Origin: Chelydra serpentina
Taxonomy: Eukaryota > Chordata > Testudines > Chelydridae
Direction of reading: 5' to 3'
DNA: 64,000 nucleotides
NCBI GenBank assembly: GCA_037349315.1
Contig: JBAIAC010000020.1
Span: 2,170,001-2,234,000 of the forward strand
Part shown: piece by piece, positions 16,901-52,289 of the stretch
How positions within the stretch are numbered: position 1 is the first letter of the stretch
Layout of the letters: every line of letters starts with the position of its first letter
Notes under the pieces: generated by a model
What the model saw: the letters and a program-made list of their open reading frames with translations, nothing else
What the model was told of the DNA's origin: nothing
Databases searched by the model: none
Program-made: the position numbers and the translations under genes

Positions 16901-17550
16901 TTATTCCCTGTCTCTTCTCCTTACACTGAGTGTCCCTGATTCACTCCTTATTAACCAGGGGACTATTCTGGTTTCTCTCCCCAGTTCCCATCACTCTGGA
17001 TCCAGATTGCAAACACCCAGAACTCAAAGTGTCAGAGGATCAGAAAAGAGTCTGGCAAGAACCTGCATCCCCTGAGCTGGATGCAGCCTCCTGGGCCCTG
17101 CTCGTGGTGGGGAAGGAGGGGTTTGTGGCTGGGAGGCAGTACTGGGAGGTGGAGGTGGGGGAGAAACTGGATTGGGAGCTGGGGGTCCTTAGTCAGTCGG
17201 TTAGGGACACAGTGAAAAAAGAGAAGGCAGAGAAAGTCCCTGAGGAGGGATATTGGTCTCTGAAGAGATCCCAGGGAGACTTTTTTTCAAGCATAAAAAA
17301 TGATAAGATTGAAAAGAAGGATATGCCATATAAAGTGATTGGTGTATTTCTGGATCAGGAAGAGGGAAGAATCTCATTTTATGATGCAGGACACATGTTC
17401 CTCATCACAACTATCCCTGCAGAGTTTACTAATAAAATTTTGTATTACCCATTCCTGAGTCCCAGGAACAACACAGGAGAGCAGAAGCCACTAGCAATCC
17501 ACCCCATCAGAGTCCCTATTCCTTTAAAGCCTCTGAGAAAGGAAAAATGA
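1809..17550 (+). CDS. butyrophilin-like gene, 3' half (TM + heptad exons + B30.2)
   Basis: This is a type I membrane protein gene of the butyrophilin/BTN-like family. These proteins sit at the cell surface and use an intracellular B30.2 (PRY-SPRY) domain for ligand sensing or immune modulation. Nine exons can be placed: 1809-1907 (TM), 2584-2610, 4430-4456, 7852-7878, 8402-8428, 10116-10142, 12607-12627, 12828-12854 and 16985-17550. Every junction breaks a codon after its first base, so the exons join in one open frame. The seven tiny exons encode a charged stalk that ends in FRRAQSYA, and the B30.2 exon follows with ITLDPD. Signal peptide and Ig exons are not in the window. The coding part seen is intact, so the gene may be functional. 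The exact BTN subfamily cannot be assigned. Confidence 0.85.
1948..2110. repeat. AT-rich microsatellite (AATAG-type)
   Basis: Irregular iterations of AAATAGAATAG and AAACAGATTAAATA lie directly after the transmembrane exon donor. This is simple-sequence expansion inside the intron. Confidence 0.8.
2213..2378. mobile_element. palindromic Penelope-type repeat (inverted dimer)
   Basis: The left arm, starting about 2219 (CAAAGAGTCCTGTGGCACC), is repeated as its reverse complement at about 2309-2374. A short loop lies between them that contains TCTGAAGAAGTGGG. The same sequence family forms one end of the Penelope-like element at 38428-38904 and of the copy at 11618-11925. The assignment to Penelope-like elements rests on that longer copy. 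Confidence 0.65.
2584..2610 (+). CDS. BTN-like mini-exon 1 (27 nt)
   Basis: A 27-nt phase 1-1 exon with pyrimidine tract plus CAG before it and GTAAGT after it, encoding NNYTTSCS. A paralogous copy at 27778-27804 keeps both splice sites. Confidence 0.7.
2758..3116. mobile_element. non-autonomous hAT element
   Basis: The termini CAGTAGCATAGCCAGC and GCTGGCTACGCCACTG are imperfect inverted repeats. The element is flanked by the 8-bp direct repeat CTAGGTTT (2750-2757 and 3117-3124). The paralogous block at 27945-27952 has the uninterrupted 8-bp site. An 8-bp duplication with CAG...CTG ends is diagnostic of hAT transposition. The interior is GC-rich with no transposase. Confidence 0.93.
3578..3599. 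repeat. (AT)n microsatellite
   Basis: Eleven uninterrupted TA units within an intron of the BTN-like gene. Confidence 0.9.
4430..4456 (+). CDS. BTN-like mini-exon 2 (27 nt)
   Basis: Acceptor TTTGCAG and donor GTAAAT bound a phase 1-1 exon encoding VNEKKTMEE, a charged heptad-like stretch. Confidence 0.72.
4560..4765 (+). mobile_element. Cry I-type tRNA-derived SINE
   Basis: The head GGGGGAGGGATAGCTCAGTG carries a Pol III A box (TAGCTCAGTGG), and the B box GAGTTCAATCC follows about 40 nt later. The body GGGGGCCATTTAGGGATCTG continues into a CR1-like tail (CAATGACCTTTCAAGG). This matches the tortoise Pol III SINE/Cry I family known from cryptodiran turtles. It is not a functional tRNA gene, because no cloverleaf 3' half is present. 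Confidence 0.88.
4944..5333. mobile_element. degenerate MITE with terminal hairpin
   Basis: The ends GCTAGGTACACACTACAGCT and the complement of CTTTCTGGTGTGGCCA form imperfect inverted repeats of the turtle 'GTCTACACTA' MITE type. Near the right end, CTTACAGTGGTGCAGCTGCA (5275-5294) is followed by its reverse complement (5299-5318). A CR1 tail is inserted near the left end. Confidence 0.65.
4980..5066 (-). mobile_element. CR1 3' tail inserted in the MITE
   Basis: About 87 bp of the CR1 3' terminus (tail repeats ATAGAATC, then CTCAGGGTTGGAAGGG) interrupt the MITE at 4944-5333. It is therefore younger than that MITE. Confidence 0.85.
5541..6494 (+). mobile_element. CR1 LINE, 3' RT portion
   Basis: A plus-strand copy that starts in the RT palm ([22 protein letters not shown]) and runs to the C-terminal MI stop and the ATTCTATG tail. 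It interrupts paralogous block A1: the sequence on both sides is contiguous at about 28980-29010 in the other copy. One codon is missing in the MIR-LEH region relative to sister copies, but the frame remains open. Confidence 0.95.
6495..7851. other. intron, no gene seen
   Basis: AT-rich intronic sequence with a GGAAA-type simple repeat at about 6540-6580. The ORFs around 7265-7556 have no start context, family similarity or splice logic. Confidence 0.5.
7852..7878 (+). CDS. BTN-like mini-exon 3 (27 nt)
   Basis: Acceptor TTTCTTTCAG and donor GTGAGA bound a phase 1-1 exon encoding EKERLLCSL. Confidence 0.75.
   Translation, partial: KKNVCSAH
8255..8330 (+). mobile_element. old CR1 3' fragment
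   Basis: AGGAGGTCAGGCTAGATGATC is the diverged 3' end typical of older amniote CR1 families. Confidence 0.6.
8402..8428 (+). CDS. BTN-like mini-exon 4 (27 nt)
   Basis: Acceptor CTCTGTTAG and donor GTAAGT bound a phase 1-1 exon encoding ETNKRTDHI. Confidence 0.72.
   Translation, partial: RPTKGQIT
8429..10115. other. intron, no gene seen
   Basis: Pyrimidine-rich and AT-rich stretches without recognisable exons or repeats. The 127-residue ORF at 8834-9217 is low-complexity (Ser/Leu/Phe-rich) and looks like chance. Confidence 0.5.
10116..10142 (+). CDS. BTN-like mini-exon 5 (27 nt)
   Basis: Acceptor TTTTGCAG and donor GTAAGA bound a phase 1-1 exon encoding AIQDIQENI, compatible with a coiled coil. 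Confidence 0.75.
10265..10730 (-). mobile_element. old CR1 3' fragment
   Basis: CACTGGGTCATAGCAAAGGT and the CATCTAGCCCACTATCCTGT segment match the diverged CR1 3' region, read antisense to the gene. The frame is decayed. Confidence 0.65.
10776..11130. repeat. ancient interspersed repeat, several degenerate units
   Basis: After an ATT microsatellite, units containing TGCTAGG(A/T)GCTGTACAA and ATTACAGTAGC recur about three times. This resembles an old amniote LINE/SINE 3' end. The family is not assigned. Confidence 0.45.
11618..11925. mobile_element. Penelope-type palindromic repeat
   Basis: AACAGGAGTACTTGTGGCAC at the left is matched by its reverse complement near 11848-11880 (GTACCACAAGTACTCCTGTT), followed by AACACGGCTGCTAATCTGAA. 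The arrangement is the same inverted dimer as at 2213-2378, with a longer spacer. Confidence 0.6.
12607..12627 (+). CDS. BTN-like mini-exon 6 (21 nt)
   Basis: Acceptor CATTTCAG and donor GTAAGT bound a 21-nt exon encoding exactly one heptad, DRLSGEL. Heptad exons of 21 nt are a hallmark of BTN cytoplasmic stalks. Confidence 0.78.
12828..12854 (+). CDS. BTN-like mini-exon 7 (27 nt)
   Basis: Acceptor CTCTGTAG and donor GTAAGG bound an exon encoding DFRRAQSYA, the conserved linker placed just before B30.2 in BTN and related proteins. Confidence 0.85.
13214..14800. repeat. GC-rich interspersed repeat, possibly LTR-like
   Basis: A sharp rise in GC begins at TGTCACGGACTCGCAGG, inside an otherwise AT-rich intron. 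It runs to an AATAAATAG segment near 14770. A TGTCAC start is common in turtle ERV LTRs, but no matching end or target-site duplication was found. The ORFs inside are GC-rich and have no recognisable domain. The family and strand are not settled. Confidence 0.4.
14806..14990 (-). mobile_element. old CR1 3' fragment
   Basis: TTTAAGGTCAGAAGGGACCA and GATCATCTAGTCTGACCTCC are the 3' end of an old amniote CR1 in antisense orientation. Confidence 0.75.
15000..16151. other. intron with possible ancient repeat, no gene
   Basis: Purine-rich sequence at 15240-15800 (GTGCCCTGTGCAGAGCCTTG and similar) looks like a degenerate ancient repeat. No exon was identified. Confidence 0.4.
16152..16327. mobile_element. 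short hAT MITE
   Basis: The ends CAGGCCTGCACAAC and GTTGTGCAGGCCTG are perfect inverted repeats. Flanks ACATAGGA and ACATAGGG are a near-perfect 8-bp duplication. The interior contains a T-rich run. It lies in the last intron before the B30.2 exon. Confidence 0.88.
16985..17550 (+). CDS. BTN-like B30.2 (PRY-SPRY) terminal exon
   Basis: The acceptor TCTCCCCAG leads into [18 protein letters not shown] (the PRY/LDP motif). Next come a [13 protein letters not shown] segment (WEV motif), [10 protein letters not shown], the EEGYWSL segment and the [17 protein letters not shown] strand pair. The order and spacing match a complete B30.2 domain of about 170 residues. The stop TGA follows a basic tail. 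The phase-1 acceptor supplies two bases that complete a Val codon with the preceding exon. There are no frameshifts or premature stops. The 16,930 ATG upstream in the same frame is intronic and is not a plausible start. Confidence 0.93.
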
Positions 17551-20365: not shown

Positions 20366-21448
20366 GGGTATGTCTACACTACGAGACTAGTTCGATTTTT
20401 GTAAAACCGAACTTGTGAACCCGATATTTCCAGGTCGATTGTTCGAATCCACACCAGGGATCTTTATTCGAATTTCCGAGTCCACAGTACGGGGGCAAGC
20501 GTCGACATTGCAAGCGGTGCACTGTGGGTAGCTATCCCACAGTTCCCGCAGTCCCCCCTGCCCACTGGAATTCTGGGTGTAGCCCCCAGTGCCTTGTGGG
20601 AACGAAATTGTGTCAAGGGTCGGTATACGTACATTTCGTCACTCGACCCACACTTCCGCCTTCCCTACGTGAAAGTGCCGGCGGGGAATGAATTCGCGCC
20701 CTTTTCCTGTGGCTGATAGCTCGGACGCCACAGGACAGTGAGCATGGAGCCCTCCGCGATTATCGCTGATGTTCTGTCCGTAGCCAACACCTCGCGCCTT
20801 ATAGCGCACCTTTTCCAGACTCAGATGCAGAGAAATCGGGAGAGGAGACAACGGAAGCTCCGGGAGTACTTGAACTCTGAGAGGGGCATGGATCTCTTGC
20901 AAAGCGCTGGACCCCGGCCCCTAGACATCATGGTGGCAATGGGTCATGTTGATCCCGTGGAACGGCGATTCTGGGCAAGGGAAACAAGCACTGACTGGTG
21001 GGACCGCATAGTGCTGCAGGTCTGGGATGAGTCCCAGTGGCTGCGAAACTTTCGGATGCGTAAGTGCACTTTTATGGAACTTTGTGAGTTGCTGTCCCCT
21101 GCCCTGAAGCGCCAGGACACCCGGATGCGAGCGGCCCTCACTATCCAGAAGCGAGTGGCCATAGCCCTGTGGAAGCTTGCAACCCCTGACAGCTACCGGT
21201 CAGTAGCAAACCAATTTGGAGTGGGCAAGTCTACCGTGGGGGTTGCTGTGATGCAGGTAGCCCGTGCAATCGTTGACCTGCTGCTCCACAAAGTAGTGAC
21301 CCTGGGAGACGTGCAGGCGATCATAGATGGCTTCGCTGCAATGGGATTCCCAAACTGCGGTGGGGCCATAGATGGGGGACACATCCCTATCCTGGGACCG
21401 GAGCACCAGGGCAGCCAGTACATTAACCGAAAGGGCTATTTTTCTATG
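20366..21448 (+). mobile_element. PIF/Harbinger DNA transposon, 3'-truncated
   Basis: The 5' terminus GGGTATGTCTACACTACG is preceded by TAA, the 3-bp target typical of Harbinger. The right half was lost where a CR1 joins. The internal leader contains CACTGTGGGTAGCTATCCCA. The terminus resembles those of the MITEs at 42840 and 63429. Confidence 0.85.
20744..21448 (+). pseudogene. Harbinger transposase, truncated
   Basis: The ATG within AGCATGGAG opens a frame with an N-terminal basic stretch (RNRERRQRKLREYL). It continues into a helical region with WKLATPDSYRSVANQFGVGK and STVGVAV, the helix-turn-helix-like part of DDE_Tnp_4 transposases. [11 protein letters not shown] supplies the first catalytic Asp. 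The remaining catalytic residues are absent because the frame runs into CR1 sequence near 21,449. About 235 residues remain of a usual length of roughly 350-400. A GTG 6 nt upstream is a less likely start. Confidence 0.85.
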
Positions 21449-23808
21449 GTTTTTGGAAAGTGTAGGGGACAATGTGCTGGAGGAACCAACTAGGGGAAAA
21501 GCTCTTCTTGACCTGCTGCTCACAAACAGGGAAGAAATAGTAGAGGAAGCAATAGTGGATGGGAACCTGGGAGGCAGTGACCATGAGATGGTCGAGTTCA
21601 GGACCCTGACACAAGGAAGAAAGGAGAGCAGTAGAATACAGAGCCTGGACTTCAGAAAAGCAGACTTTGACTCCCTCAGGGAACTGATGGGCAAGGTCCC
21701 CTGGGAGAATAACATGAGGGGGAAAGGAGTCGAGGAAAGCTGGCTGTATTTTAAAGAAACCTTATTGAGGTTGCAGGAACAAACCATCCTGATGTGTAGA
21801 AAGAAAAGTAAATATGGCAGGCGACTAGCTTGGCTTAACAGTGAAATCCTTGCTCGTCTTAAACACAAAAAAGCAGCTTACAAGAAGTGGAAGATTGGAC
21901 AAATGACCAGGGAGGAGTATAAAAGTATTGCTCAGGCATGCAGGAGTGAAATTAGGAAGGCCAAATCACACTTGGAGTTGCAGCTAGCTGGAGATGTTAG
22001 GAGTAACAAGAAGGGTTTCTTCAGGTATGTTAGCAACAAGAAGAAAGTCAAGGACAGTGTGGGCCCCTTGCTGAATGAGGGAGGGAACCTTGTGACAGAG
22101 GATGTGGAGAAAGCTAGTGTACTCAATGCTTTTTTTGCCTCTGTCTTCACAGACAAGGGCAGCTCCCAGACGGCTGCACTCCGCAGCACGGTATGGGGAG
22201 GAGGTGACCAGCCCTCTGTGGAGAAAGAAGTAGTTCGGGACTATTTAGAAAAGCTGGACGAACACAAGTCCATGGGGCCGGATGCACTGCATCCGAGGGT
22301 GCTAAAGGAGTTGGCCGATGTGATTGCAGAGCCATTGGCCATTATCTTTGACAAATCATGGCAATCGGGGGAGGTCCCGGATGACTGGAAAAAAGCTAAT
22401 GTAGTGCCCATCTTTAAAAAAGGGAAGAAGGAAGATCCGGGGAACTACAGGCCAGTCAGTCTCACCTCAGTCCCTGGAAAAAGCATGGAACAGGTCCTCA
22501 AGGAATCAATTCTGAACCACTTAAAGGAGGGGAAAGTGATCAGGAACAGTCAGCATGGATTCACCAAGGGCAAGTCATGCCTGACTAACCTAATTGCCTT
22601 CTATGATGAGATAACTGGCTCTGTGGATGAGGGGAAAGCAGTGGATGTGCTATTTCTTGACTTTAGCAAAGCTTTTGATACAGTCTCCCACAATGTTCTT
22701 GCCAGCAAGTTAAAGAAGTATGGGCTGGATGAATGGACGGTAAGGTGGATAGAAAACTGGCTGGATGGTCGTGCTCAACGGGTAGTGATCAATGGCTCCA
22801 TGTCTAGTTGGCAGCCGGTATCAAGTGGAGTGCCCCAAGGGTCGGTGCTGGGGCCGGTTTTGTTCAATATCTTCATCAACGACCTGGAGGATGGTGTGGA
22901 CTGCACCCTTAGCAAGTTTGCAGATGACATTAAACTGGGAGGAGTGGTTGATACGCTGGAGGGTAGGGATAGGATACAGAGGGACCTAGACAAATTAGAG
23001 GATTGGGCCAAAAGAAATCTGATGAGGTTCAACAAGGACAAGTGCAGAGTCCTGCACTTAGGACGGAAGAATCCCATGCACTGCTACAGACTAGGGACCG
23101 AATGGCTGGGCAGCAGTTCTGCAGAAAAGGACCTAGGGGTTACAGTGGACGAAAAGCTGAATATGAGTCAACAGTGTGCCCTTGTTGCCAAGAAGGCTAA
23201 CGGCATTTTGGGCTGTATAAGTAGGGGCATTTCCAGCAGATCGAGGGACGTGATTCTTCCCCTCTTTTCGGCACTGGTGAGGCCTCATTTGGAGTACTGT
23301 GTCCAGTTTTGGGCCCCACACTACAAAAAGGATGTGGATAAATTGGAAAGAGTCCAACGGAGGGCAACAAAAATGATTAGGGGGCTGGAGCACATGACTT
23401 ATGAGGAGAGGCTGAGGGAACTGGAATTGTTTAGCCTGCAGAAGAGAAGAGTGAGGGGGGATTTGATAGCTGCTTTCAACTACCTGAAAGGGGGTTCCAA
23501 AGAGGATGGATCGAGACTGTTCTCAGTGGTAGAAGATGACAGAAGAAGGAGTAATGGTCTCAAGTTGCAGAGGGGGAGGTTTAGGTTGGATATTAGGAAA
23601 AACTTTTTCACTAGTAGGGTGGTGAAGCACTGGAATGGGTTACCTAGGGAGGTGGTGGAATCTCCTTCCTTAGAGGTTTTTAAGGTCAGGCTTGACAATG
23701 CCCTCGCTGGGATGATTTAGTTGGGTTTGGTCCTGCTTTGAGCAGGGGGTTGGACTAGATGACCTCCTGAGGTCCCTTCCAACCCTGAGATTCTATGATT
23801 CTATGATT
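21449..23808 (+). mobile_element. CR1 LINE, long 5'-truncated copy with open RT frame
   Basis: The copy starts in the C-terminal part of the endonuclease ([17 protein letters not shown]) and runs through the complete reverse transcriptase to the stop at 23718-23720 and the ATTCTATG tail. Visible RT blocks are [35 protein letters not shown] (motif A), [20 protein letters not shown] (motif B) and FADDIKLGG (motif C). No stop interrupts about 755 codons, so the insertion is young. A 13-bp loss near 21,470 relative to the 38.9-41.4 kb copy shifts the endonuclease remnant. The apparent fusion with Harbinger codons is chance. Confidence 0.95.
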
Positions 23809-23811
23809 CAT

Positions 23812-24272
23812 GTTGTCGTGAAAAGACTGGGTCACGCTCAGCAGCTTCGGTGGGCAGCCATTCTTTGCCAAGATCTTGAACAGCCCATCTCTGTTCACAA
23901 GGTCGAAAGCTTTGGTCAGGTCTATGAAGGCAAGGAGTAGTGGCTTATGCTGTTCTCTGCATTTCTCTTGCTGCTGCCTTAAGGAAAAAACCTTGTCGGT
24001 TGCAGATCTCCCTGCTCGGAACCCGCACTGTGACTCTGGGTAAACTCTGTCAGCAAGCTTCTGTAGTCTGTTCAGGATCACGCGTGCGAAGACTTTACCC
24101 ACAACACTCAGGAGCGATATGCCTCTGTAGTTGTTGCAGTCGCTTCTATCACCCTTGTTCTTGTAGAGGGTCACGATGTTGGCGTCTCTCATATCCTGAG
24201 GTACTGCACCTTCGTCCCAGCGCTGACAGAGGAGGTTGTGGAGGTGTTCTAGGAGGACGTTGATGCAGTTAG
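23812..24272 (-). mobile_element. non-CR1 non-LTR retrotransposon RT fragment
   Basis: The minus-strand frame contains IVTLYKNKGDRSDCNNYRG, ISLLSVVGKVFARVILNRLQ, the PESQCGFRAGRSATDKVFSL block and AFIDLTKAFDLVNRDGLFKI (RT motifs up to motif A). It then runs out at the junction with the CR1 tail. The sequence clearly differs from CR1. The clade is uncertain. Motifs B and C are missing. Confidence 0.8.
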
Positions 24273-24324
24273 GGCTAACACACTCAGATCACATTCGAGC
24301 TTGGCTGCCTGCTTCTTTTTGAAG

Positions 24325-25345
24325 GAAAATTGCTTTAGTTTTTACTGTTCTATTTGGTTAATAAATAGCTACATAAATGTATAAACTGAAAGTACAGACT
24401 TCAACTGCAATGTACAACATCCATGAAGATTAAAAGATTCCTCAAAGCGAAAATCTATGTACAGCACATGGCAGTGCATGGAATCCGGATATGTAGGTAA
24501 GAAATCACAGTTTATTAAAACTGATCATAGATAGGTTTTTGCAAGTCTAGTTGTCTCATGTAATTGGGAGATTACAATCAGATTCTTGGTCTGAAACAAC
24601 ATGGAGGATAATTCACTGCCATTTTCAGATACCTATGAACATACTTTGATCAGTTTTATGTTTACACGCCACAAAATTGAAGACATTCCTCTCTACTGGA
24701 GAGGTTTAGGCAGGTTGGTTATAAGGAAGTTTTTTCCAGACAAGGGTGTTTTTGATAGTCTTTTACACTTAATGGAATGGCTTATTATTTTAATTGTGAT
24801 TGTAATGCTCAGAATATATATATATATAAATATCCAGCCTCTCTATCCTTTGGGAGAAATGGATTTGAATGTGGAGAAAGGGACATGTTCCACCTTCTTT
24901 ACAATTTCCAGCCAGATCCTCAGTTGGTGTAAACTGATGGGGCCCCATTGATCCAAGTTAAGGATCTGACCCATGTAATGTTACTCCATTTTCTTAACTA
25001 CTATTTTTTGCTTTATTCAGCACCTGGACAGAACTCTGAACCTCCAAAGAAAACTGTGAACTGAATGGGTTTAGAGTAATGAACAGAAAGGTCAGTCAAT
25101 AGGAATAAGGATTACAGCATTGCTCACAAATGTATTGCGCTTTCTTGTACAGGAATAACACTGAAACATATAGTGCTTTAATTTCAAGAGCCTGGGAAAT
25201 CCTAATAATACCTGCCCCAGCATGTTGCTTTTTGAGAAGTTTCTTGATGTACTGGTGTTTTGAATGTCTGCCCTGCAATGGATTTGTTATTCCAGTGGAT
25301 GACAGCTAATCAGATACTGACTTTTCTATAGACACCCTACTTGAT
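24325..25345. repeat. paralogous block B1 (copy at 37278-38945)
   Basis: From AAATTGCTTTAGTTTTTACT onward the sequence aligns with 37278 onward, including GGTGTAAACTGATGGGGCCC and the CACCTGG(A/G)CAGAACTCTG segment. B1 lacks the Cry I and Penelope insertions present in B2. No gene is visible within. Confidence 0.8.
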
Positions 25346-31760: not shown

Positions 31761-32218
31761 CTGCTTGGCAAATGAGACAGGTCCTGATTTTCATTGTTTT
31801 CTGTCCCACTTTATAGTGAGTGAGAACCTCCAGTGTCCTAAGCTGATCTTTAGTTGCCTACTTTCTGGTTTCCTGGGGCTTAGTCTTGTGAGGTGCCTGG
31901 AAACTGCTGCAAACTATTTAGTGCCCTCAACACCCACTGATGTTAATGAGAGTTCCTGATGCTCATCATCTCCCAGGAATCTTTAGTATTTTACAAGGTT
32001 GGGCCTTAGGAAAAGAGAAAATTAAAAATGGGAGTTCTGAATTCAGTGGGAGATCAATTCACAAGATCAACTCCCTAATCTGTATGTACAAGACTTCAAT
32101 ATTTTGGACCTGATTCAGCAAAGCATTTAAGGCTGTACATTATTTTAAGTATCTGAGTAATCTCATCAACTTCAGTGGCACTTTTCATGTGTTTAATATT
32201 GGAAGTAGTATGAGGAGG

Positions 32219-32466
32219 TTTTGACCAATTAGGGTGACTTCTGGGGTCAAGGTGGCCACCTGACCGGAAGCAGTGTGTATCGTGTGACCCCTCTAAGAAC
32301 TCCCCCCACCGCCCTCTACCAATCAGAAGGGGCTTTGCCCTGGTAGGACCGCCCTGAGAGGAGATTTTGACCAATCAGGGTGACTTCCGGGAGCGGGGTG
32401 ACCCGTCCGGAAGCAGGTCATGTGACCCCTCTAAGAACGCCCCCCACCACCCTCTGCCAATCAGAG
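32219..32466 (+). promoter_or_regulatory. duplicated CCAAT-rich promoter/enhancer region
   Basis: Two units about 146 bp apart (from 32219, and a shorter one from 32365) share TTTTGACCAAT, AGGGTGACTTC, GTGACCCCTCTAAGAAC and CCAATCAG. Each holds two CCAAT boxes and CTTCCGG-like or CCGGAAGC (ETS-type) motifs. GC content jumps compared with the flanks. It precedes the first viral-type ORF by about 90 bp, so an early promoter is the natural reading. It could also be part of an inverted terminal repeat of the invading element. Confidence 0.65.
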
Positions 32467-32554
32467 CACAGCACCATCACCCCATACGTCCCAGGGCCGG
32501 ACAGAGGCGGCCATCTCTTACCAACGACGCGTGGAAAGGCTGCTGAGAGGAAAC

Positions 32555-32869
32555 ATGGACTCCTTCACCACCCCCGTGAGAACTTCGGAGTTTGTTTTAG
32601 CCCCAAGGGTTTTCAACCATCCACGGAGAAAGCGCTACATCAGCGACAGTTCCGAGGAGGAGGAGGGAGCAGCCGAGGGAAGCCCTTTGGCCCAACCGTT
32701 GATGGATACGCCGGAACCCGAACCCGAAACGCAACTGCTCATGAAACACCCCGATGAGCATGACAGTCTCTCGTTGTCCACCCCCTTAGAGGTAGATGGT
32801 GATCGCGGCTCAGGGGAGTCACCGGTGGACAAGGTGAACGGAAAAGTCGTTGCTCAGGTAAATGAATGA
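32555..32869 (+). CDS. unrecognised acidic early-type ORF of the viral segment
   Basis: The first ATG after the promoter repeats lies in AAACATGGACTCC and gives about 104 codons. The product is basic near residue 25 (PRRKRY), then strongly acidic (SDSSEEEEGAAEG, a casein kinase II-like patch), then rich in Glu/Pro/Ser. No transmembrane segment and no LxCxE motif was seen. A donor-like CAG/GTAAAT lies near its end, but the obvious downstream acceptor at 32958 would be out of phase. I do not recognise a homologue. The GTG at 32531 is a less likely start. Confidence 0.6.
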   Translation: MDSFTTPVRTSEFVLAPRVFNHPRRKRYISDSSEEEEGAAEGSPLAQPLMDTPEPEPETQLLMKHPDEHDSLSLSTPLEVDGDRGSGESPVDKVNGKVVAQVNE

Positions 32870-32948
32870 TTAAGAAGGGACGGTCAAATGGGGGAGGGTA
32901 ATGGGGCTAGGAACCAGGGCTTATGTAAATTAAAAAACAAGCCATGGG

Positions 32949-33494
32949 GTGCTTCTAGAGGACCTGAAGGCCCTGGACAGCATTGCATCAAGCAGCGAAG
33001 ATGAACCGGGCCCGCCTTGTTTTTGCTCAACGCCACTACAAATTGTTGAAGAGGACTCTAAGGATGACGGCTATGAGGAGTTTAGGAGGAGGCTTGGCAT
33101 GGAACTCACTGAGCCAGTGCCACGTTGTGAGCGTAAAAAAGTTATGCGTACTATTGTACGCGTTGCTGTTTATGCTGTTCTTAATCACTGTTTTAGGGAA
33201 AAACTTTTTGAAGATTGTGAGGGCTATGTCATAGACGCACCAGGCCAATGGCACCATGACTGTGTGACTTGGACTTCAATGGATATAAACTGCAAGCTCC
33301 GGGGACTGTGTGCTGACCTGTGTTTGGAAAGCTTATTAAACATTGTCATTGCCATAGGTTATGCTATGCAATGTCTGTGCCTAACCCAAGAACATTTAGC
33401 GCAAGGGATGACCTTGATAAATGCTGTGCAATTCAGTGGAGACCCTGACCGTGTTTTAAAGAAAATGACCAAACCGGAAGATGCCTGCTTATAG
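32949..33494 (+). CDS. unrecognised Cys-rich ORF of the viral segment
   Basis: The open frame has no ATG until 33099, so either a spliced upstream exon or the internal start would be used. It begins with an acidic serine stretch (SSSEDEPG) and carries a basic patch (CERKKVMR). It then has a central Cys/His-rich part that includes PGQWHHDCVTW, INCKLRGLCADLCLESL and YAMQCLCL, and ends TKPEDACL. The Cys/His spacing would suit a metal-binding fold. It shares a poly(A) signal at 33754 with the preceding ORF. No family was recognised. Small regulatory proteins of DNA viruses are a loose structural analogy only. Confidence 0.6.
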   Translation: MLLEDLKALDSIASSSEDEPGPPCFCSTPLQIVEEDSKDDGYEEFRRRLGMELTEPVPRCERKKVMRTIVRVAVYAVLNHCFREKLFEDCEGYVIDAPGQWHHDCVTWTSMDINCKLRGLCADLCLESLLNIVIAIGYAMQCLCLTQEHLAQGMTLINAVQFSGDPDRVLKKMTKPEDACL

Positions 33495-33753
33495 CGTTAT
33501 ATTGACCATCTGGTCCCCACAAAAAGTTACAGAACCCTGCTTAAGAAAAAGACTATTTGTAAGAAATCTAAAAAGATAAAGTTAGAAAATGGTGAGGGGA
33601 CAAACATGCGATATAAAACTTGGTAGCTGTACATTTAAAAAAAAATCAATTGAAAAGGACTTTGTGACTATCTGTATTTTTGTTTGAAGGTTTCTGTGAG
33701 CTAAAAGTTTTAATGAAGCATCTTGGTTTGTTTAAGGAGCTGTATGTTTTTTA

Positions 33754-33759
33754 AATAAA
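33754..33759 (+). terminator. poly(A) signal of the early-type unit
   Basis: AATAAA lies 260 nt after the 33,494 stop and is followed by a GTTTGTGAG/TTTTGTGTC G/T-rich stretch. It would end a transcript covering both early-type ORFs. Confidence 0.65.
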
Positions 33760-33779
33760 AAACTAAATTGTTTGTGAGA

Positions 33780-34255
33780 GCCTAGCTTTTGTGTCTTTTG
33801 TGTAAGAGAGACCCATTTACAGCAAAAAGCTGAAATGTATGATGTGGGAGGGGGAAAAATCCTAAAAATGTGCTTACAATAAAACAAACAGGGGTGGTTC
33901 AGACATGTGCTTAAACTGAATAGGTTTAACCACACACACCCCTCACTGAATAGCCAAGGTAACTGTGCTTAAAAAATAAACTCCAAGACATGTATTGATA
34001 TCTGCAAAAGGGGCCACCCCACTTGGAAATGGGTACAGTTACATTAAGAATTGATGATTTACTGTTTAATACTGTAAGAAGGCCCTACAAAAAAAGTGTG
34101 TTTTAACAAAAAGAAAAAAAAAATTAGCCAAAAGCAACCCAGTTGTGCAGACAGTTTAATTTCCCCACCCCAGATCACAAAAGGGAATAGAACTATGGTG
34201 ATTAAATTAACCTGCTAGCTACTCTTTTGAAGCCTGTTTGAAACAATGGGTTAGG
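33780..34255. other. spacer between two viral-type units, no ORF
   Basis: A-rich spacer without open frames. It probably separates the first transcription unit from the next TATA box. Confidence 0.45.
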
Positions 34256-34259
34256 ATGG

Positions 34260-34266
34260 TATAAAA
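34260..34266 (+). promoter_or_regulatory. TATA box of the polymerase-like unit
   Basis: TATAAAA lies about 30 nt before the start of a probable non-coding first exon that ends at a donor (AGAAGAG/GTAAGC, exon end 34337). The next exon begins at 34437. Confidence 0.6.
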
Positions 34267-34436
34267 GTCTTAGGTATTTTTGCAGACTCTCCTTTTCAAC
34301 AGAAAGTTCAAGAAGTACTGCTGGGGCACAAGAAGAGGTAAGCACCCTGTTTTTAAGTTTGAAAATATATATTATATAATATTACTTTTTGGCCCATGCT
34401 GTTTTAGTAAAATAATGGTGCCTATCTTTATTGCAG

Positions 34437-34567
34437 TGTGATCTGTTTAGCATGGAACCAGTAACTTTAAGCTGCATTTTACCACCTGGCCAAGGTAAAA
34501 ACCATTTTTAACTAATCCAAAGGCCCAAGCCCACATTTGACTTTTTAATGCATGTGGAGCTGCTGCC

Positions 34568-34601
<34 letters not shown>

Positions 34602-35149
34602 CGAGGGGGGGTTGTGCAAGACATAGGTGTGTGTTTTTAAAATATTTGGTTGCAAACTGTTTATTTTAAACTAACAGAGGTTTTTTTTTTACTGTGCAAA
34701 ATGTGGTGTTTTTTAAAAGGGGGTTGTTTATAGGGGTTTGATGCTTTTTAGTTTGTTCTTTAACCTGAAGGTCCAAACACACATGGAGGAAAACAGAGCA
34801 ACCATGTGCCAGCAGCCCTTTATCCTGTGATAGAAGGTAACTTTCTGCAAGTGGCTTTTAAATGCATGTGGGTTTATTGAAAAGTATTTGTTTGCAAACT
34901 GTTTCAAACTAACAAGGTTTTCTGTGCAAAATGTGTTTTAAAATGGATTTTAAAAGCAGTTTGGTTTTTATTCTGCAAAATGAGATGTATTTCTACATGT
35001 GTTTTATTATATTGTTGTTTGCTCCACAGTACGGTCCAAACATGAGAGATCCTTAGACATTAGCGTAAACAAACTCAAAAGAAAAAGGAAAGGGACAGCT
35101 GAAAAGGAAAATTCGCCAGCATCAGTGGCTGATGGATGGATGAAGCCCA
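34437..35149 (+). CDS. three small leader exons of the polymerase-like gene
   Basis: Three exons sit between canonical sites: 34437-34494 (ATG at 34452, encoding MEPVTLSCILPPGQ), 34771-34836 and 35030-35149. Each ends after the first base of a codon. The next acceptor at 35281 continues in the same phase into the long frame that follows. The third exon is very basic (KLKRKRKGTAEKE), suggesting a nuclear localisation signal. All lie downstream of the TATA box. The splice sites are seen in sequence. That they belong to one transcript is inference. Confidence 0.55.
34575..34612. repeat. (TG)n(AG)n microsatellite
   Basis: TGTGTGTG followed by AGAGAGAG within an intron of the viral-type unit. Confidence 0.85.
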
Positions 35150-35281
35150 GTAAATATATTTTGCTTATTGGTTTTGGTTGTTTTATGAGGCTTTGTATTT
35201 TAAGTAAATACATAGGTGGGGGTGAGAGAGCTGGCAAAGTTCATTTTTGTAAAATGATTTTTTTCCCCCTCTCCTAATTAG

Positions 35282-37275
35282 GCATGTGCAGCTCTCCTGA
35301 CAATGCTGTAGTCAGAGCTACAAAGACACCTCCACCAGAACCGCCAAAGAACCAGGAATCTGCTTTGAGACCTTTAACAACGCTAACGCAAAACAGCACA
35401 AGAGTGCAAATGAAGCATCCGGGCAGTCCAAACCTCATATAAGTCAAACCCAAGGACAAAACAAAAGACTCTGGTAAAAAACCATGCAACCACAACTCCA
35501 GTTCCTCAGTGGCCACCACCACACTAAGCCCTGAGGAAACTGTGAGCGAAAATGCCCACATTCACAAACCCAGAGCACGCACTCTAGGGGTTCGGCATGT
35601 GCGCAAACCCAGAGCAGGCGCTCTATGGGCTGCATATAAAAAACCACGGACAAAAAGCTTCTGCAATACTGAGGTATTGCAACCACATAACCACAACTCC
35701 AGTTCCTCAGCGGCCACCACCACACCAAGCCCTGAGGAAACTGTGAGCGAAAATGCCCACATTCACAAACCCGGAGCAGGTGCTCTAGGGGTTGTGAATA
35801 AAAAACCAAGGACTGACAAACCATTCTCCCAAAACCATAAGCTTGTGACAGCTCCCCCATATTCTAGTGTATGGGAAGAGTTTGATGCTTCATTCAAAAA
35901 ACTGATGGATGCTGTATCCTTGGGGAGTCTAAAAGAATGGCATTCTAAAAAGATTTGGGAAAAATATGATGCTTTGTTCAGAACAAGGCTGAACTCTGTA
36001 TCCTCAGGGGGTCTAAAAGACAGTAGGGCTGAAAAGGGTGGCTCTGAGCAGGCGTGACTAGTCGTGGAAAGGGGCCTGGGTAAAAGGGGCACCCTCAAGG
36101 GTACACATCAGCTCATCTGTAAACAAAAATGGGGACAACGCTTGAGGGATAAACAGGTGGCTGCCAAAAAGTTCCAGGCCAGGGTCGTTGTAAACATTTT
36201 AAAAAGGGCTAAAGAGGCAATGAGGAAAAAAAACCAAAAAGAGATGCCCCCTACTGGAGGCTCTCAAACTGACTTGTCTGAAAATGGGAAGGTGGAACCC
36301 GACTCTTGCGCAGAGTCTGGCTTAGCAAATTCCCCAGAGGGCTCTCTAGATGGGCCCCGTTCTACTCTCAATGACCCTCATGGAGGCGCCTCAGAGTCTG
36401 ACTCTCAAATAGCATCTGATGTAGAAGATGCCGCTAATGGCGCCATAGAGGAAGCCCCAAGTAACCCTGAAAATGCAGAGGTGTATATGGAGAGAGTGAG
36501 AAGTTGGCAACGTGAATTACCTAGATTTGGGGGATCGGTGTAGTGTGAGGAATTTCGTTTTGTCAATCTTGATAGAATAAATTCAGCTCAGCAGGTTGTT
36601 GAAGCCATACATAGGGGAATACAGTTAGTGCTTGATGACGTTAATGGTAGGGTAGGCCCTGATGATTATGTTCAGTTACGTTTAGAGAGCCGTAATTTAA
36701 CTAACCCTTTGTTTTCGGTCAGAAGAACTAGGGATGAGTTATCTGCTGAGGATTTCTTAAATCAGACCTCAAAGCTGCTACAGAGCAATAGAGAGTTGCA
36801 TGTCAATGGGACATTGCGCCTTGTTGTGACAGTTGTAAGAAACAAGGGTGGGGGCGCTCGTAGAGTTTTAAATTTGATCCTTAGTAGTCAAATTATTCAT
36901 AAAAAGAGACAATGTTTAGTAGACCTGACTTACACCGGTACCAATCTGTGTTTTACGGGTGGGCTCTTGGCCGTCATGTCTGACCGTAAACCTATGGACA
37001 TGGAATTGTTAGCAGAGGCAAGAAAGTTTCATGAGAAACTGGGGTGGTCAGATCAAAAAAAGATTTTGCTCAGTGACGTAGCAAAGTTTGAACAACATTT
37101 AGCAGTTAACATACAGGTGGTGCTGTATAAGGCGAAAGGTGGCTGGGGCTTTTTTAAAACGGGGGAGGGGCTGGTGTACCTCAAGACTTATTTTATCCTG
37201 TTGCACAATGAGCAATGCTATGGGGTTCTGGATGTAAAAAAGTTGTTCGTCGCGAAAAATTATTGTGAGTTTTTG
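35282..37275 (+). pseudogene. Polinton/adintovirus-like pPolB N-terminal region, decayed
   Basis: One continuous frame is interrupted by three stops: TAA at 35440, TGA at 36055 and TAG at 36541. The first third contains an in-frame 201-bp direct repeat (from about 35500 and 35701, PEETVSENAHIHKP). A 27-residue repeat follows (W-E-x-[FY]-D-A-x-F ... S-x-G-x-L-K). A Lys/Arg-rich and then acidic linker comes next. From about 36580 the frame reads DDYVQLRLESRNLTNPLF, KLLQSNRELHVNGTLRL, RQCLVDLTYTGTNLCF and YFILLHNEQCYGVLDVKKLF, ending in YCEF. The order and character of these blocks match the region before the exonuclease domain of protein-primed DNA polymerase B in Polinton/Maverick and adintovirus elements, and more distantly adenovirus. 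The exonuclease and polymerase domains are absent because paralogous block B2 begins at about 37278. Confidence 0.62.
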
Positions 37276-37576
37276 AATGCAAATTGCTTTAGTTTTTACT
37301 CTTGTATTTGGTTAATAAATAACTACATAAATGTGTAAACTGAAAGTACAAACTTCAACTGCATGGAAAAATATCCGTGAAGACTGAAATATTTCTCAAA
37401 GCCACAATCCATGTACAGCACGTAGCAGTGCATAGGACCCTGCTATGCAGGTAAGAAATCAGTTTAGCAAAAACTGATCATAGAGAAAGAGATTATTGTG
37501 CGTCTAGCTGCCTAATTTAATTGGGAAATTACAGTCAGATTCTTGGTCTGAAACAACATGGAGGATAATTGACTAC

Positions 37577-37742
37577 CATAGAATCATATAATATCAGGGT
37601 TGGAAGGGACCTTAGGAAGTCATCTAGTCATTGCTCAAAGCAGGACCAATCCCCAATTTTTGCCCCAGATCCCCAAATGGCCCCCTCAAGGATTGAATTC
37701 ACAACCATGGGTTTAGCACGCCAATGCTCAAACCACTGAGCA
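37577..37742 (-). mobile_element. Cry I-type SINE with CR1 tail
   Basis: On the minus strand the tRNA-type head (GCTCAGTGGTTTGAGCAT...) is followed by GGGGGCCATTTGGGGATCTG and a CR1 3' end (CCAACCCTGATATTATATGA). The first bases of the tRNA head are missing. Absent from block B1. Confidence 0.85.
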
Positions 37743-38427
37743 TACTTTGAACAGTTTTATGTTTACACGCCACAGAATTTAAGGCATTCCTCTCTACTGG
37801 AGAGGTTTAAGCAGGGTGGTTAGAAGGAAGTTATTTCAAGGCAAGGGAATTTTTGACAATCTTTTACACTTAATGGAATGGGCTTATTAATTTAATTGTC
37901 ATTTTGTTGCTCAAAACATGTCAAAAGGTATCCAGCCTCTATCCTTTCGGAGAAATGGATTTGAAGGATGAGACAGAGATATGTTCCACCTTCTTTACAA
38001 TTTGAGGCCAGATCCTCAGTTGGTGTAAACTGATGGGGCCCCATTGATCCAAGTTAAGGATCTGACCCATGTAATGTTACTACATTTTCTAAACAACTAT
38101 GGTTTGCTTTGTTCAGCACCTGGGCAGAACTCTGAACCTCTGTAACAAACTTGATTTGGACATCCTTTATGAGTAACAAACAGAGAGGTCAGTCAATAGC
38201 AATAAGGATTACAGCATTGCTTGCTAATGTATTGCTCTTTCTTGTACAGCAATAACATTGAAACCTATTGTGCTTGCCTTTTAAGGGCCTGGGAGAATCT
38301 CATAATACCTGACCCAGCATGTTGCCTTTTGAGAAGTTTGTTGACATATTGGTGTTTTGAATGTCTTCCCAGCAATGGATTCCTTATTCCCATGGATGAC
38401 AGCTATCCAGATACTGACTTTTCTACA

Positions 38428-41727: not shown

Positions 41728-42254
41728 TTATTCCTCTTTAATTGAACAAATTCTCATTGTTGTTTCTTTGTGTGAATTTTTAAAGAATGGATAAACCTCT
41801 CCTGAGAATGAACAATTGTTAAATGTGAACAACACAGACATGTCAGTTACATTAAAAAAAGTCACCAATCTGTCTTTGTAACAAAGGTAAATTCCAATTT
41901 TCTTGGGCTTTTTCTGCACCATGACCTGGGTCCATGGATCTGTTTTTGCCCAGTAATCTCTCCCATTCAGACCCAGAGCCCAGAAACCCTCTTTAGGGGA
42001 CAGGGAAAGTTTTCCTTTTCTGTGTGTTGATTTTCTGGCCACTCCCAGGTCCCAGTCAGTGCTGCTCGTGACATCCACCTCCCAGTAGTGCTTTCCATCA
42101 GAGAATCCTTCAGAGCCCAACACACAGATGGTCGAATCGAACCTCTCTGGATTTGGTGGAACTTGTTGAGGTTGGGCTTCATGTGTAAAACTCATCTTAT
42201 TGTCAGCAACAGAGAGGATGAGATGGGCAGTGTCTGCATCAAGTGTGATGTTAT
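41728..42254 (-). CDS. B30.2 (PRY-SPRY) terminal exon, TRIM/BTN-type gene
   Basis: On the minus strand the acceptor CTCTTCCTGTAG leads into NITLDADTAHLILSVADN (PRY). CVLGSEGFSDGKHYWEVDV (WEV motif), DWDLGVARKS, LSPKEGFWALGL and KPKKIGIYLCYKDRLVTFFN follow, ending ICSIKEE and a stop. This is a complete B30.2 domain without frameshifts. The VLGSEGF.(D/S)G.HYWEV and RK(S/G)K(L/I).LSP wording is closer to TRIM/A33-type SPRY genes than to the BTN-like exon at 16985. Upstream exons would lie at higher coordinates, but a multiply interrupted retrovirus starts about 500 bp away. The gene is either a long-intron gene or a truncated remnant. The ATG at 42351 in the same frame is intronic. Confidence 0.85.
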
Positions 42255-42754
42255 CTACAGGAAGAGAGTTTTCTTTCTGAGAACCACTCCTATTATGCCA
42301 GTATAAACTGGAATAGGAGGGAAATATACACTTTGAGCCTTCGCCTGCCACCTCTCCTCATGCAAGGGAGAGGACTGCAGGACTTGACCCATGCTGCACT
42401 ATTGCCAATTCAATGTTGTATTGAACTATTTTGGAAATGAGACTTGCTTGGTATTTACACAAAAATAAAAGTGACCCTGATCTGTTTATCACATTAGTGC
42501 TCAAACTGGGCGAGATTCTGAGCTCAGTTACACAAGTGTGAATCCAGAGGAATTTCACTTAAACTAATGGCCAGCAAAGTGCACCATTACCAATATAATT
42601 GAGAGCTGAATCTCATTATGGGATGTTTTGTGTGTAAAGAATGGCAAAACTCTTTCCTATAACAGCTAACTATGATGAGAAGTTCATCATGAAACACAGA
42701 ACTGGATTACTGAGAACTCAAACACTGGTCATGTCAACATACCCCTATTACTAC

Positions 42755-43125: not shown

Positions 43126-43269
43126 TCATACTGCGAGACTTGGGAAAGCAGACTCTGTGTCTGATCCAGGGGGGAAATAACACAGAGTTAGTGTGATCTA
43201 ACCTTGAAGATAATGATGTTCTGAGAACAGAAGTGAGACAGAAGTGAGAAAATAATGGAATGGGCAGGA

Positions 43270-43850
43270 CATAACATAAATAAATTGCAGATGTGAGTTT
43301 GAAAGGACCTGCTCAGGCGGTCCGCCAAGGTGTTCTGGGCTCCTGGGAGAAACAAGGCTACCAGGTGAATGGAGCAGACTATGCAAAAGTCCCAGAGCTG
43401 AGTTGCCTCTCGGCAGAGGGGGAGGGAGTGTGCCCCTCCCTGTCTGTTGATGTAATGCATGGCCGTCGTGTTGTCTGTAAGGATGGAGACACAACGGCCC
43501 TGTAAGTGTTGAGCGAAGGCTTGGCAGGCAAGACGTACCGCTCGGAGTTCTCTGACATTGATGTGTAATGTCAGCTCCTGTTCTGACCACAGGCCCTGCG
43601 TTTGGAAGTTCTGCAGGTGAGCCCCCCAGCCGAGGGATGACGCATCCGTAGTCAAGGCACGGGAAGGCTGAGGTGGATGAAAGGGAACACCTGACATCAC
43701 ATGTGCGGGGTCCAGCCACCAGTTGAGGGAGGCTAGGACTTGCGGTGGGACCGTCAGAATCATATCGAGGTTGTCCCTGTGTGGCCGGTATGCGGAGGCC
43801 AGCCATGCTTGGAGGGGCCGTAGTCGTAACCTGGCGTGAGCTGTCACGAA
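43270..43850 (-). pseudogene. DIRS-1 RNase H domain
   Basis: The frame reads ALTTDASSLGWGAHL (first catalytic Asp), LTLHINVRELRAVRLACQAF (Glu), CVSILTDNTTAMHYINRQGG (second Asp) and PGAQNTLADRLSRSF (final Asp). This is the RNase H fold used by DIRS elements. The frame is open across the domain, then the element is truncated. Confidence 0.85.
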
Positions 43851-44883
43851 GGTGCATGATGCCATATGACCCATGAGGCTGAGGCAGCAGCGGGCTGTTG
43901 AAGTTGGGAAGGCTTGGAGGCTGCGTATGGCGGCTGCAAGTGTTTGAAAGCGAGCCTCTGGGAGGAACGCCCTGGCGAGAGTAGAGTCCAGTATTGCCCC
44001 ATGAAGTCTATTCTCTGTGTTGGCACCAAAGTGGACTTTTCTACGTTCAGCAGGAGGCCCAGACGGTTGAACATGTCCATGGCCTTGCGAATGTGAGACT
44101 GGACCTGGTTGGCGGAGTTGCCACGGATAAGCCAGTCGTCGAGGTAGGGGAATACCTGAACTCTTTGACGCCGAAGGGCGGCTGCTACCACTGCCATGCA
44201 CTTCGTAAAGACCCTCGGTGCTGTTGAGAGGCCGAATGGCAGGACCGCGAACTGGAAGTGTCTCTGGCCACTACGATGCGCAGGAAGCGTCTGTGAGATG
44301 GGTAGATGGCAATATGGAAATACGCGTCCTTCATGTCGAGGGCGGCGTACCAGTCTCCCTGATCCATAGAGGGGATAATAGTGCCCAGGGAGAGCATACG
44401 GAATTTCAACTTTACCATAAATTTGTTGAGACCCCGTAAATCCAGGATAGGACGTAGCCCCCCCTTCGCCTTTGGGATTAGGAAATAACGGGAGTAGAAT
44501 CCCTTGCCTCTGAGATCTCTTGGGACCTCCTCCACCGCTCCTACAGTGAGGAGTTCGTGTACCTCCTGGATAAGGAGTTGCTCGTGAGAAGGGTCCCTGA
44601 AGAGGGACGGGGTGGGAGGGTGGGATGAAGGCGGGGAGACGAACTGCAATCGGTATCCCCCTTGGACGGTATGTAAGACCCAGCGGTCCGTGGTGATATG
44701 TGACCACGCCGGGGAGAAGGGGGAGAGGCGGTTCAGGAACAGGAGGGCAGGATCGGTTGGGACTGGTACTCCGGCCTCGAGCGCCCCTTCAAAAATTTTG
44801 TTTGGGCCCCGACGATGGCTTGTGGGGGCCCTGCCTCTGGCCTGTCTGTCGGCCGGGCTGCTGTCTCCGACCCCCTCGACCAC
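43851..44883 (-). pseudogene. DIRS-1 reverse transcriptase, frameshifted
   Basis: KGFYSRYFLIPKAKGGLRPI, ILDLRGLNKFM and ALDMKDAYFHIAIYPSHRRF (motif A) lie in one frame. HFQFAVLPFGLSTAPRVFTK (motif B) and YLDDWLIRG (motif C, catalytic YLDD) lie in another. The switch occurs near 44,270. All RT catalytic blocks are recognisable and of DIRS type. Confidence 0.88.
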
Positions 44884-51335: not shown

Positions 51336-52289
51336 GTGATCCCAGGAGGCGGAACAAGCCTTTGTAACTATTAAACAAGCTCTTTCTAGTGCCCCTGCCC
51401 TTGGACTTCCTGATTATGCTAAACTCTTTATTCTTTTCTGTCATGAGTGGAATGGATTTGCTTTGGCTGTGTTAACACAGAAACATGGAGATAAACACCG
51501 TCCACTTGCTTACTATAGCACTGCGTTGGATCCGGTAGCAACTGGTTTTCCGCCCTGCCTTAAGGTTGTCATGGTGGCAGTTTTATCTGTGCAGTTATCT
51601 GAAAATATCATTTTGGGCTCACCATTAACCATTTCTGTCCCTCATGCTGTAGCAGCCCTTCTGTTAAAATCAAGGATGCAGCATTTGTCTACTTCTCGAC
51701 TTACCAAGTATGAGCTTGTCCTGTTATCTTCGTCTCATATTATCTTGGCTCGTTGCCCCATTCTGAATCCTGCTTCCCTGTTACCTGGACTTCAAGACGG
51801 GGAGGCTCATGATTGCAGATCTATTACTTCTCTTCTTGCCCGCCCTAGGGAAGATCTTACTGATGTGCCTTTGCAGAATCCTGACCTTATTTATTTTGTA
51901 GATGGTTCCTGTTTGCGAAACTCTGAGGGAAAATTGGTTGCTGGTTATGCTGTCTGTTCTTCCTATTCTGTTACTGAAAGCGCTTCAGGTGGCTGAGCTC
52001 ATAGCCTTGACTAGGGCATGCATTTTGGCACAAGATCAAACTGTTACTATTTATACTGACTCTCGTTATGCTTTTGGAGTGGCTCATGATTATGGTGTGC
52101 TTTGGAAATATAGAGGTTTTCTTACATCCTTTGGTTCTCCTATAAAGAATAGTTGGTATATTTCAGCTCTTTTGGATGCCCTTTTGTTAGCCAAAGCTAT
52201 TGCTTTTGTGAAATGCATTGCTCATCAGACCCCTCATGATGAAGTTACTTGTGGAAATGCTTTGGCTGATTGAACAGCCAAGGATGCTG
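51336..52289 (+). pseudogene. ERV RT connection and RNase H
   Basis: The connection domain contains SSAPALGLPDYAKLFILFCH and RPLAYYSTALDPVATGFPPC. The RNase H part has DLIYFVDGSCLRNSEG (first Asp), AELIALTRA (Glu), TVTIYTDSRYAFGVAHDYG (second Asp) and GNALAD before a stop in the usual linker. One frame change lies near 51,990. The gypsy fragment begins right after AAKDAA-type linker codons. Confidence 0.87.

What the first reader, a model, noticed from the sequence alone, without database searches (positions are those of the whole stretch)
32219..37275. Endogenous DNA-virus segment with a Polinton/adintovirus-like polymerase N-terminus
A 5-kb block that is neither host-like nor a standard retroelement has two promoter/poly(A)-defined units. 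The second ends in a frame whose block order matches the N-terminal region of protein-primed DNA polymerase B, and is cut exactly where a duplicated host block begins. The first unit encodes two proteins I cannot place. This is the best candidate for an undescribed system in the window.
Basis: partly seen in the sequence, partly recalled or inferred. Interest (0 to 1): 0.88.

Follow-up and report, generated by a model that had tools for sequence, protein, structure and literature searches.

The report
Truncated Maverick/adintovirus in a turtle genome
The block is the broken left part of a Maverick/adintovirus, a known kind of DNA virus that inserts itself into animal genomes and is present in many copies in this turtle; longer copies carry the same gene beginning at both ends, an arrangement worth a closer look.

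Summary
In detail: window 32204-37272 is an endogenous viral segment. It is the left part of a Maverick (Polinton)/beta-adintovirus-type provirus. It starts at the (AGT)2 terminal motif, keeps two 146-bp terminal repeats, then carries a two-exon accessory gene and the N-terminal part of the protein-primed DNA polymerase gene, and stops where host DNA resumes. [quoted passage not shown] The other end carries an rve+chromodomain integrase and an adenovirus-type protease. A Trachemys relative of the polymerase piece runs on into Pfam DNA_pol_B_2.

The copy is dead: truncated polymerase, in-frame stops, lost splice acceptor. What may be new is in longer copies: their inverted terminal repeats contain promoter region, coding first exon, intron and splice acceptor, so two terminal genes would share one N-terminus. 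Expression was not tested.

The parts
32204..32211 (+). Element terminus AGTAGTAT, the (AGT)2 Maverick end motif; the host flank just before it reads ATTGGA
   Evidence: Same motif starts 6 of the 7 first-fetched other loci; C44 duplicate L053 has the same host flank and the full terminus
32212..32465 (+). Remains of the terminal repeat array: two copies of a 146-bp repeat with CCAAT and ETS-like CCGGAAG sites; the outer part of the terminus is deleted in this copy
32555..32857 (+). Exon 1 of the accessory gene (unit 1), starts MDSFTTPV; acidic/serine stretch and RRKR
   Evidence: tblastn with P0008 residues 1-102, 87% over 32555-32866; GT donor at 32858 read
32955..33623 (+). Exon 2 of the accessory gene; interrupted by an in-frame stop at 33492-33494; the intron's splice-acceptor stretch is missing from this copy
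33754..33759 (+). First AATAAA after unit 1
34260..34267 (+). TATAAAAG, putative promoter of the polymerase unit; 34230-34300 is 96% identical in the 3 copies compared
34452..34494 (+). Predicted small upstream exon MEPVTL.. of the polymerase unit
   Evidence: Weak match to P0005 1-18 (E 0.77); 93-95% in the 3 copies compared
34771..34836 (+). Predicted second small exon
   Evidence: Match to P0005 9-35 over 34755-34835, E 6.7e-5; 98% in the 3 copies compared
35031..35149 (+). Predicted third small exon
   Evidence: P0005 and P0058 matches from 35029; 96% in the 3 copies compared
35283..36543 (+). N-terminal extension preceding the polymerase domain, interrupted by three in-frame stops; the frame also ends at the middle one in L010, L011 and L013 (247 codons in each), not in L012, which diverges before it
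36544..37272 (+). N-terminal domain of the protein-primed DNA polymerase B; continues in other copies, cut here
37273..38425 (.). Host DNA after the truncation; paralogous to window 24316-25328 (84-85%)

Best explanation
This is a dead, truncated provirus of the turtle Maverick/beta-adintovirus lineage. Shown: it begins at the element's terminus, carries the left accessory (early) gene and the start of the pPolB gene, and has lost the rest; polymerase sequence is joined to host DNA at a short T-rich overlap, which suggests a deletion. The truncation is older than the duplication that made the C44 copy, because C44 shares the insertion site and the right-hand junction. How intact relatives work, inferred from family knowledge: a chromodomain integrase inserts linear DNA with 6-bp target duplications; pPolB copies the genome from protein-primed termini; terminal CCAAT/ETS repeats drive an early spliced gene beside each end. 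In this lineage the terminal inverted repeat includes the early gene's first exon, intron and splice acceptor, so the left end would make a roughly 300-aa protein and the right end a short protein with the same N-terminus. That both are transcribed and spliced is inferred.
For: PolB: P0006 (Trachemys) is 68% identical over the overlap and carries PF03175 (E 4.3e-7, 29.6 bits, cut-off 25.8) at its residues 270-347. The newt protein P0059 matches at 39% over 91% of the query. Copies L011 and L013 continue past 37273 with matches to P0006, L013 up to its residue 233 where the fetched stretch ends. Termini and TSD: (AGT)2 ends; 6-bp TSD in 6 of 8 copies tested, 4 of 5 independent insertions. Inverted terminal pairs 17.0-18.2 kb apart. 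At the other end of C48: rve E 1.5e-13, chromo E 1.1e-6, Peptidase_C5 E 2e-5. Shared insertion site and right junction in C44. Shared exon: 45 rows from 42 of 47 held loci fall into two end types after the same acceptor (rows were picked by an exact 13-base string at the start of exon 2). Coding constraint: exon 2 dN/dS at most 0.41 in the 20 defined pairs among seven other loci; polymerase N-terminus dN 0.0018, dS 0.0386 between L011 and L013.
Against: The window's polymerase piece has no Pfam or PHROG match of its own and no PDB sequence match, alone or as a profile, so the assignment rests on relatives; no fetched copy was read as far as the PF03175 region. The OTU-like fold was not confirmed: model pLDDT 50.7, and no OTU protein among the 50 PDB rows listed. 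The three capsid-region ORFs gave no Pfam match. The window's own TSD cannot be tested because the right end is gone. No RNA evidence was examined. The palindromic C42 copy lacks a 6-bp TSD and C132's right end was not recognised. L012, one of four copies fetched for the polymerase unit, has other sequence from 35785 on.
Confidence: 0.95

Rival explanations
1. A non-viral DNA transposon or host gene family that only resembles a viral polymerase.
For: Relatives are annotated only as uncharacterized or hypothetical host proteins in nearly all names shown, and the window piece matches no Pfam family itself.
Against: A longer copy carries integrase with chromodomain and adenovirus-type protease, and a relative runs into DNA_pol_B_2.
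Confidence: 0.02
2. An exapted host gene: unit 1 has been domesticated in turtles and the viral remnant is retained for it.
For: Unit 1 is annotated as a gene in many turtles: 49 of 50 hits are named turtle proteins, 1 has no name. Low dN/dS between copies.
Against: This copy has an in-frame stop and no splice acceptor. There are many similar copies at different sites, so the constraint fits viral or element function rather than one host locus.
Confidence: 0.05
3. The truncation is the end of a natural short (non-autonomous) element rather than a deletion.
For: A 3,055-bp element with both termini and a perfect TSD exists (C8).
Against: The window copy has no terminal inverted repeat at its right edge; it stops inside the polymerase frame and host DNA follows.
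Confidence: 0.03

Closest known systems
Vertebrate Mavericks/Polintons (PMC8097293; section 7 read whole, other parts as passages)
   Same: (AGT)2 termini, 6-bp TSD, 17-18 kb, pPolB side and integrase side at opposite ends, accessory regions beside the ends; turtles listed as hosts, 101 elements in Terrapene carolina
   Different: The paper describes intronless core ORFs in intact elements; here predicted small spliced exons precede the polymerase, and the terminal repeats include a coding exon. The window copy is only the left part.
Beta adintoviruses, reference Terrapene box turtle adintovirus (PMC11071296 and PMC10812802, passages read)
   Same: PolB, rve integrase with C-terminal chromodomain, adenovirus-type protease, turtle host
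   Different: The reference sequence and its paper (PMC8502044) are not held here, so identity to it and its early-gene annotation were not compared; placement in the Beta clade is inferred from the turtle host
Densovirus-type DNA polymerase (A0A8A4XCR8, Phylloscopus inornatus densovirus)
   Same: Top structural match in BFVD for the polymerase N-terminal model (E 1.1e-3); PMC11071296 says bidnavirus-type parvovirus relatives carry an adintovirus-class PolB (passage)
   Different: 10% identity, TM-score 0.20 by query, low-confidence model; only a hint

Membership tests
Maverick/Polinton | Protein-primed DNA polymerase B | tested here: met
   Via relatives: P0006 with PF03175, P0059, and continuation in L011 and L013; the window holds the N-terminal part only, and protein priming itself was not tested
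Maverick/Polinton | (AGT)2 // (ACT)2 termini | tested here: met
   Window left end 32204-32209; of the 8 copies both ends were read in 7, all AGTAGT except the C152 right end (one base changed); in C42 the left AGTAGT is followed by altered sequence
Maverick/Polinton | 6-bp target-site duplication | tested here: met
   6 of 8 sibling copies, 4 of 5 independent insertions; C132 right end not recognised, C42 fails. Not testable in the window copy
Maverick/Polinton | Retrovirus-like integrase | tested here: met
   PF00665 at the other end of sibling C48, the only copy scanned; similar frames in C152 (split) and C245; absent from the window copy
Maverick/Polinton | Adenovirus-like protease | tested here: met
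   PF00770 in sibling C48
Maverick/Polinton | Major and minor capsid proteins | tested here: inconclusive
   Three ORFs in the expected place between integrase and protease, no Pfam match
Maverick/Polinton | Packaging ATPase | not tested
   The middle of the elements was not fetched
Adintovirus | PolB with N-terminal OTU-like domain | tested here: inconclusive
   Model pLDDT 50.7; no OTU among 50 listed PDB rows
Adintovirus | rve integrase with C-terminal chromodomain | tested here: met
   PF00665 and PF00385 in one protein of sibling C48
Adintovirus | Hexon recognisable by BLASTp against reference adintoviruses | not testable with these tools
   Reference proteins not held

The most novel reading that the evidence does not exclude
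In this turtle Maverick lineage the terminal inverted repeat is itself part of a gene: it carries enhancer-like repeats, a coding first exon of about 100 residues, an intron, the splice acceptor and the first seven codons of exon 2. The two ends therefore make two different early proteins with an identical N-terminus. Replication-driven homogenisation of the termini keeps both copies alike, and a palindromic derivative (C42) and a short one (C8, with a broken frame) keep this terminal gene region.
Probability: 0.6. Interest if true: 0.5.

Novelty: new member of a known kind. Interest (0 to 1): 0.36.

Why it matters
It shows that a large family of turtle 'uncharacterized' gene models (unit 1) belongs to an endogenous virus, which should be flagged in annotation. 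It also gives insertions with clean target duplications for dating activity in turtles. If the shared-exon terminal repeats are expressed, they offer a concrete case of terminal repeats coding for paired early proteins in a virus group whose biology is little known.

Tried and rejected
Scans of viral contigs with the polymerase piece and unit 1 gave 9 and 3 pattern matches but no relatives. An alignment scan was not possible because too few columns are conserved. A degenerate DNA pattern for the unit-1 Cys/His stretch found nothing in viral contigs; the idea that this stretch resembles other viral early proteins is recalled, from no call, and is not supported here. PDB sequence searches gave nothing for the polymerase piece or for either profile, and three chance-level rows for unit 1 (E 0.19-0.78). 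Both structure models are too weak to interpret; fold searches gave no match at E 0.001 or better. I looked for LXCXE in unit 1 by eye only and saw none. The coincidence of the cut with a duplicated block was considered and dropped. Genome-wide counts of the polymerase piece were never obtained, because the tool stayed busy. Papers: PMC8502044 not held. The listings showed no title that describes a coding exon inside adintovirus or Maverick terminal repeats, but these listings were partly capped and I read only the passages and the one section named, so this is not a claim of absence.
Full report
What is there. The window comes from a 2.28-Gb genome (G000, contig C20:2170001-2234000). Relatives of its viral proteins are turtle proteins, and the window also holds SPRY-domain and reverse-transcriptase frames. 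The block's proteins match turtle loci mostly annotated as uncharacterized or hypothetical and, for the polymerase, one newt protein.

Polymerase. The frame 36544-37338 finds four proteins at E up to 1: Gopherus 89% identity, Carettochelys 75%, Trachemys 68%, Emydura 73%, the last two over less than half of the query. A profile search adds a second Emydura protein and a newt (Pleurodeles) protein at 39%. The Trachemys protein overlaps the end of the window's frame and continues into Pfam PF03175, DNA_pol_B_2 (residues 270-347, E 4.3e-7, above its cut-off), and into a PHROG DNA polymerase family (E 6.7e-5). The window piece itself has no Pfam, PHROG or PDB match. Of four copies fetched for this unit, L011 and L013 align to the window up to 37273 and then continue with matches to the Trachemys protein; L013, with a change of frame, reaches its residue 233, where the fetched stretch ends. 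L010's stretch ended before this point and L012 diverges at 35785. [quoted passage not shown] I could not confirm that fold. The model has mean pLDDT 50.7. Its best viral structural match is a densovirus DNA polymerase at E 1.1e-3. The best PDB rows are Y-family polymerases at E 0.007 or worse, which I do not interpret.

Unit 1. The two open pieces around 32555-32869 and 32934-33494 align in order to single NCBI protein models: P0008 from Macrochelys with residues 1-102 and 105-294, P0009 from Gopherus with 1-90 and 101-323. They are two exons of one protein of about 300 residues. Exon 2 finds 50 proteins, 49 named from turtles and one unnamed. The window's pieces match no Pfam family; of six relatives scanned, none reached a family cut-off. 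The structure model is weak (pLDDT 47.7). Its function is inferred only: a nuclear early or accessory protein, from its position beside the terminus, its spliced structure, an RRKR stretch, acidic serine-rich stretches and conserved cysteines. In the window copy the gene is broken: the intron's acceptor stretch is absent and an in-frame stop interrupts exon 2.

Termini and family. Unit 1 has 150 matches among the 150 candidates scored (of 289) in the genome; 21 places besides the window match nearly the whole query at 88-94%. Two of these are the arms of one palindrome, and some of the 150 are fragments of one copy. Six of the first seven other loci begin AGTAGTATAAGGGCCC, the (AGT)2 terminus reported for vertebrate Mavericks (PMC8097293, section 7 read). 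The window starts with AGTAGTAT at 32204, followed at once by the internal 146-bp repeat; the C44 duplicate has the same host flank and the complete terminus. A search with the terminal 204 bases gave 142 matches (40 of 283 candidates scored), among them inverted pairs 17.0 to 18.2 kb apart (C10, C48, C211, C245, C152), one pair 3,055 bp apart (C8) and one 4.3 kb apart (C42). I tested eight copies for target duplications: C10, C48, C245, C211, C152 and C8 have perfect 6-bp duplications; C132's right end was not recognised in the stretch fetched; the C42 palindrome has none and is instead flanked by a host direct repeat of about 86 bp. C245, C211, C152 and C132 share one flank and count as a single insertion, so 4 of 5 independent insertions pass.

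The other end. In C152, C245 and C48 the end without unit 1 carries, after the terminal repeat, an integrase frame (split in C152), further frames and a protease frame. Only C48 was scanned with Pfam: rve E 1.5e-13, chromo E 1.1e-6, adenovirus endoprotease E 2e-5; three other frames gave nothing. These are Maverick/adintovirus genes, so the window copy is the left part of such an element.

Shared terminal exon. The two ends of the C152 element match each other over up to 1,272 alignment columns at 94%. The C152 and C10 left ends match the right ends of C245 and C48 over about 0.9 kb at 95-99%. The match runs through the repeat array, exon 1, the intron, the acceptor and the first seven codons of exon 2. 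The left end then continues into unit 1, the right end into a 38-codon tail with a stop, followed by AATAAA. One search lists 45 rows from 42 of the 47 loci then held (L001, the window's own copy, and L010-L013 gave none); 14 rows are of the right type and 31 of the left. Rows were picked by an exact 13-base string at the start of exon 2, and many are overlapping loci or duplicated copies, so they are neither unbiased nor independent. The acceptor ends in CAG in all 45, and the 38-codon tail is uninterrupted in all 14 right-type rows. C42 consists of two left-type ends facing each other. C8 keeps the unit-1 region between two terminal repeats, with a break of frame early in exon 2. That two proteins are made is inference.

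Constraint and decay. Exon 2 dN/dS is at most 0.41 in the 20 defined pairs of the seven other loci (21 pairs, one without changes), but the numbers of changes are small (1-5 synonymous); window comparisons give 0.24-0.32. For the polymerase piece, L011-L013 gives dN 0.0018 and dS 0.0386, while window-L011 gives dN 0.031 and dS 0.059, as expected for a copy that decayed after insertion. In the polymerase's N-terminal extension the frame ends at the same place in L010, L011, L013 and the window. Either the polymerase starts downstream of it, as the Gopherus model does, or these copies were spread by the enzymes of others.

Right edge. The first 300 bases of the host block after 37273 have four other copies in the genome, at 99, 91, 84 and 84%; one of them is window 24.3 kb. 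C44 (99% there) shares the insertion site and the virus-host junction with the window, so the truncation is older than that duplication (or C44 is an unmerged haplotype). The overlap at the junction is a short T run, which suggests end joining after a deletion (inference). Between the window and C44, divergence is about 6% over 32212-34998 but about 2.4% over 35060-38427; gene conversion from another copy is possible and untested.

Judgement. This is a known kind of element in turtles: PMC8097293 reports 101 Mavericks in Terrapene carolina, one intact (passage), and PMC10812802 reports adintovirus sequences in a tortoise (passages). The window copy is one more, truncated. The terminal shared-exon arrangement is the only feature I would call possibly new, and the key paper on turtle adintoviruses was not available to check.

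Noticed in passing
L009 (G000:C42:72969840-72974689): A palindromic derivative: two left-type ends head to head, each with a unit-1 gene, flanked by a direct host repeat of about 86 bp instead of a 6-bp target duplication.
   Followed up: partly
G000:C8:24410796-24413850 (L036, L037): A 3,055-bp element with both termini, a perfect 6-bp target duplication and only the unit-1 region inside (its frame is broken early in exon 2): a short non-autonomous derivative.
   Followed up: partly
G000 contigs C444, C132, C232, C109, C92, C211, C245, C152: Copies recur at regular spacing (about 48 kb in C444) or with identical flanks in several contigs, so part of the copy number comes from large host duplications or arrays, not from new insertions.
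   Followed up: no
L053 versus window 32212-38427: The C44 duplicate is about 6% diverged over the left viral part but about 2.4% over the rest, as if one copy's left part had been replaced by gene conversion.
   Followed up: partly
P0034 (Chelonia mydas) and L008 left flank: P0034 is a gene model that joins a Myb/SANT-like domain (PF13837, E 6e-5, below the family cut-off) to unit-1 exon 2; the L008 copy seems to lie beside a similar reading frame (by eye). Possible exon trapping.
   Followed up: no
window 16930-17547 (+) and 41731-42357 (-): SPRY/PRY domain exons, as in butyrophilin or TRIM-type host genes.
   Followed up: no
window 21372-23717 (+), 23758-24288 (-), 51340-51993 (+), 43191-44270 (-): Reverse-transcriptase and RNase H frames of several retroelements (the last is just below its family cut-off).
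   Followed up: no
window 43.2-48.0 kb and 57.1-61.5 kb: Two related retroelement-like blocks, 68-78% alike in the matching pieces.
   Followed up: no
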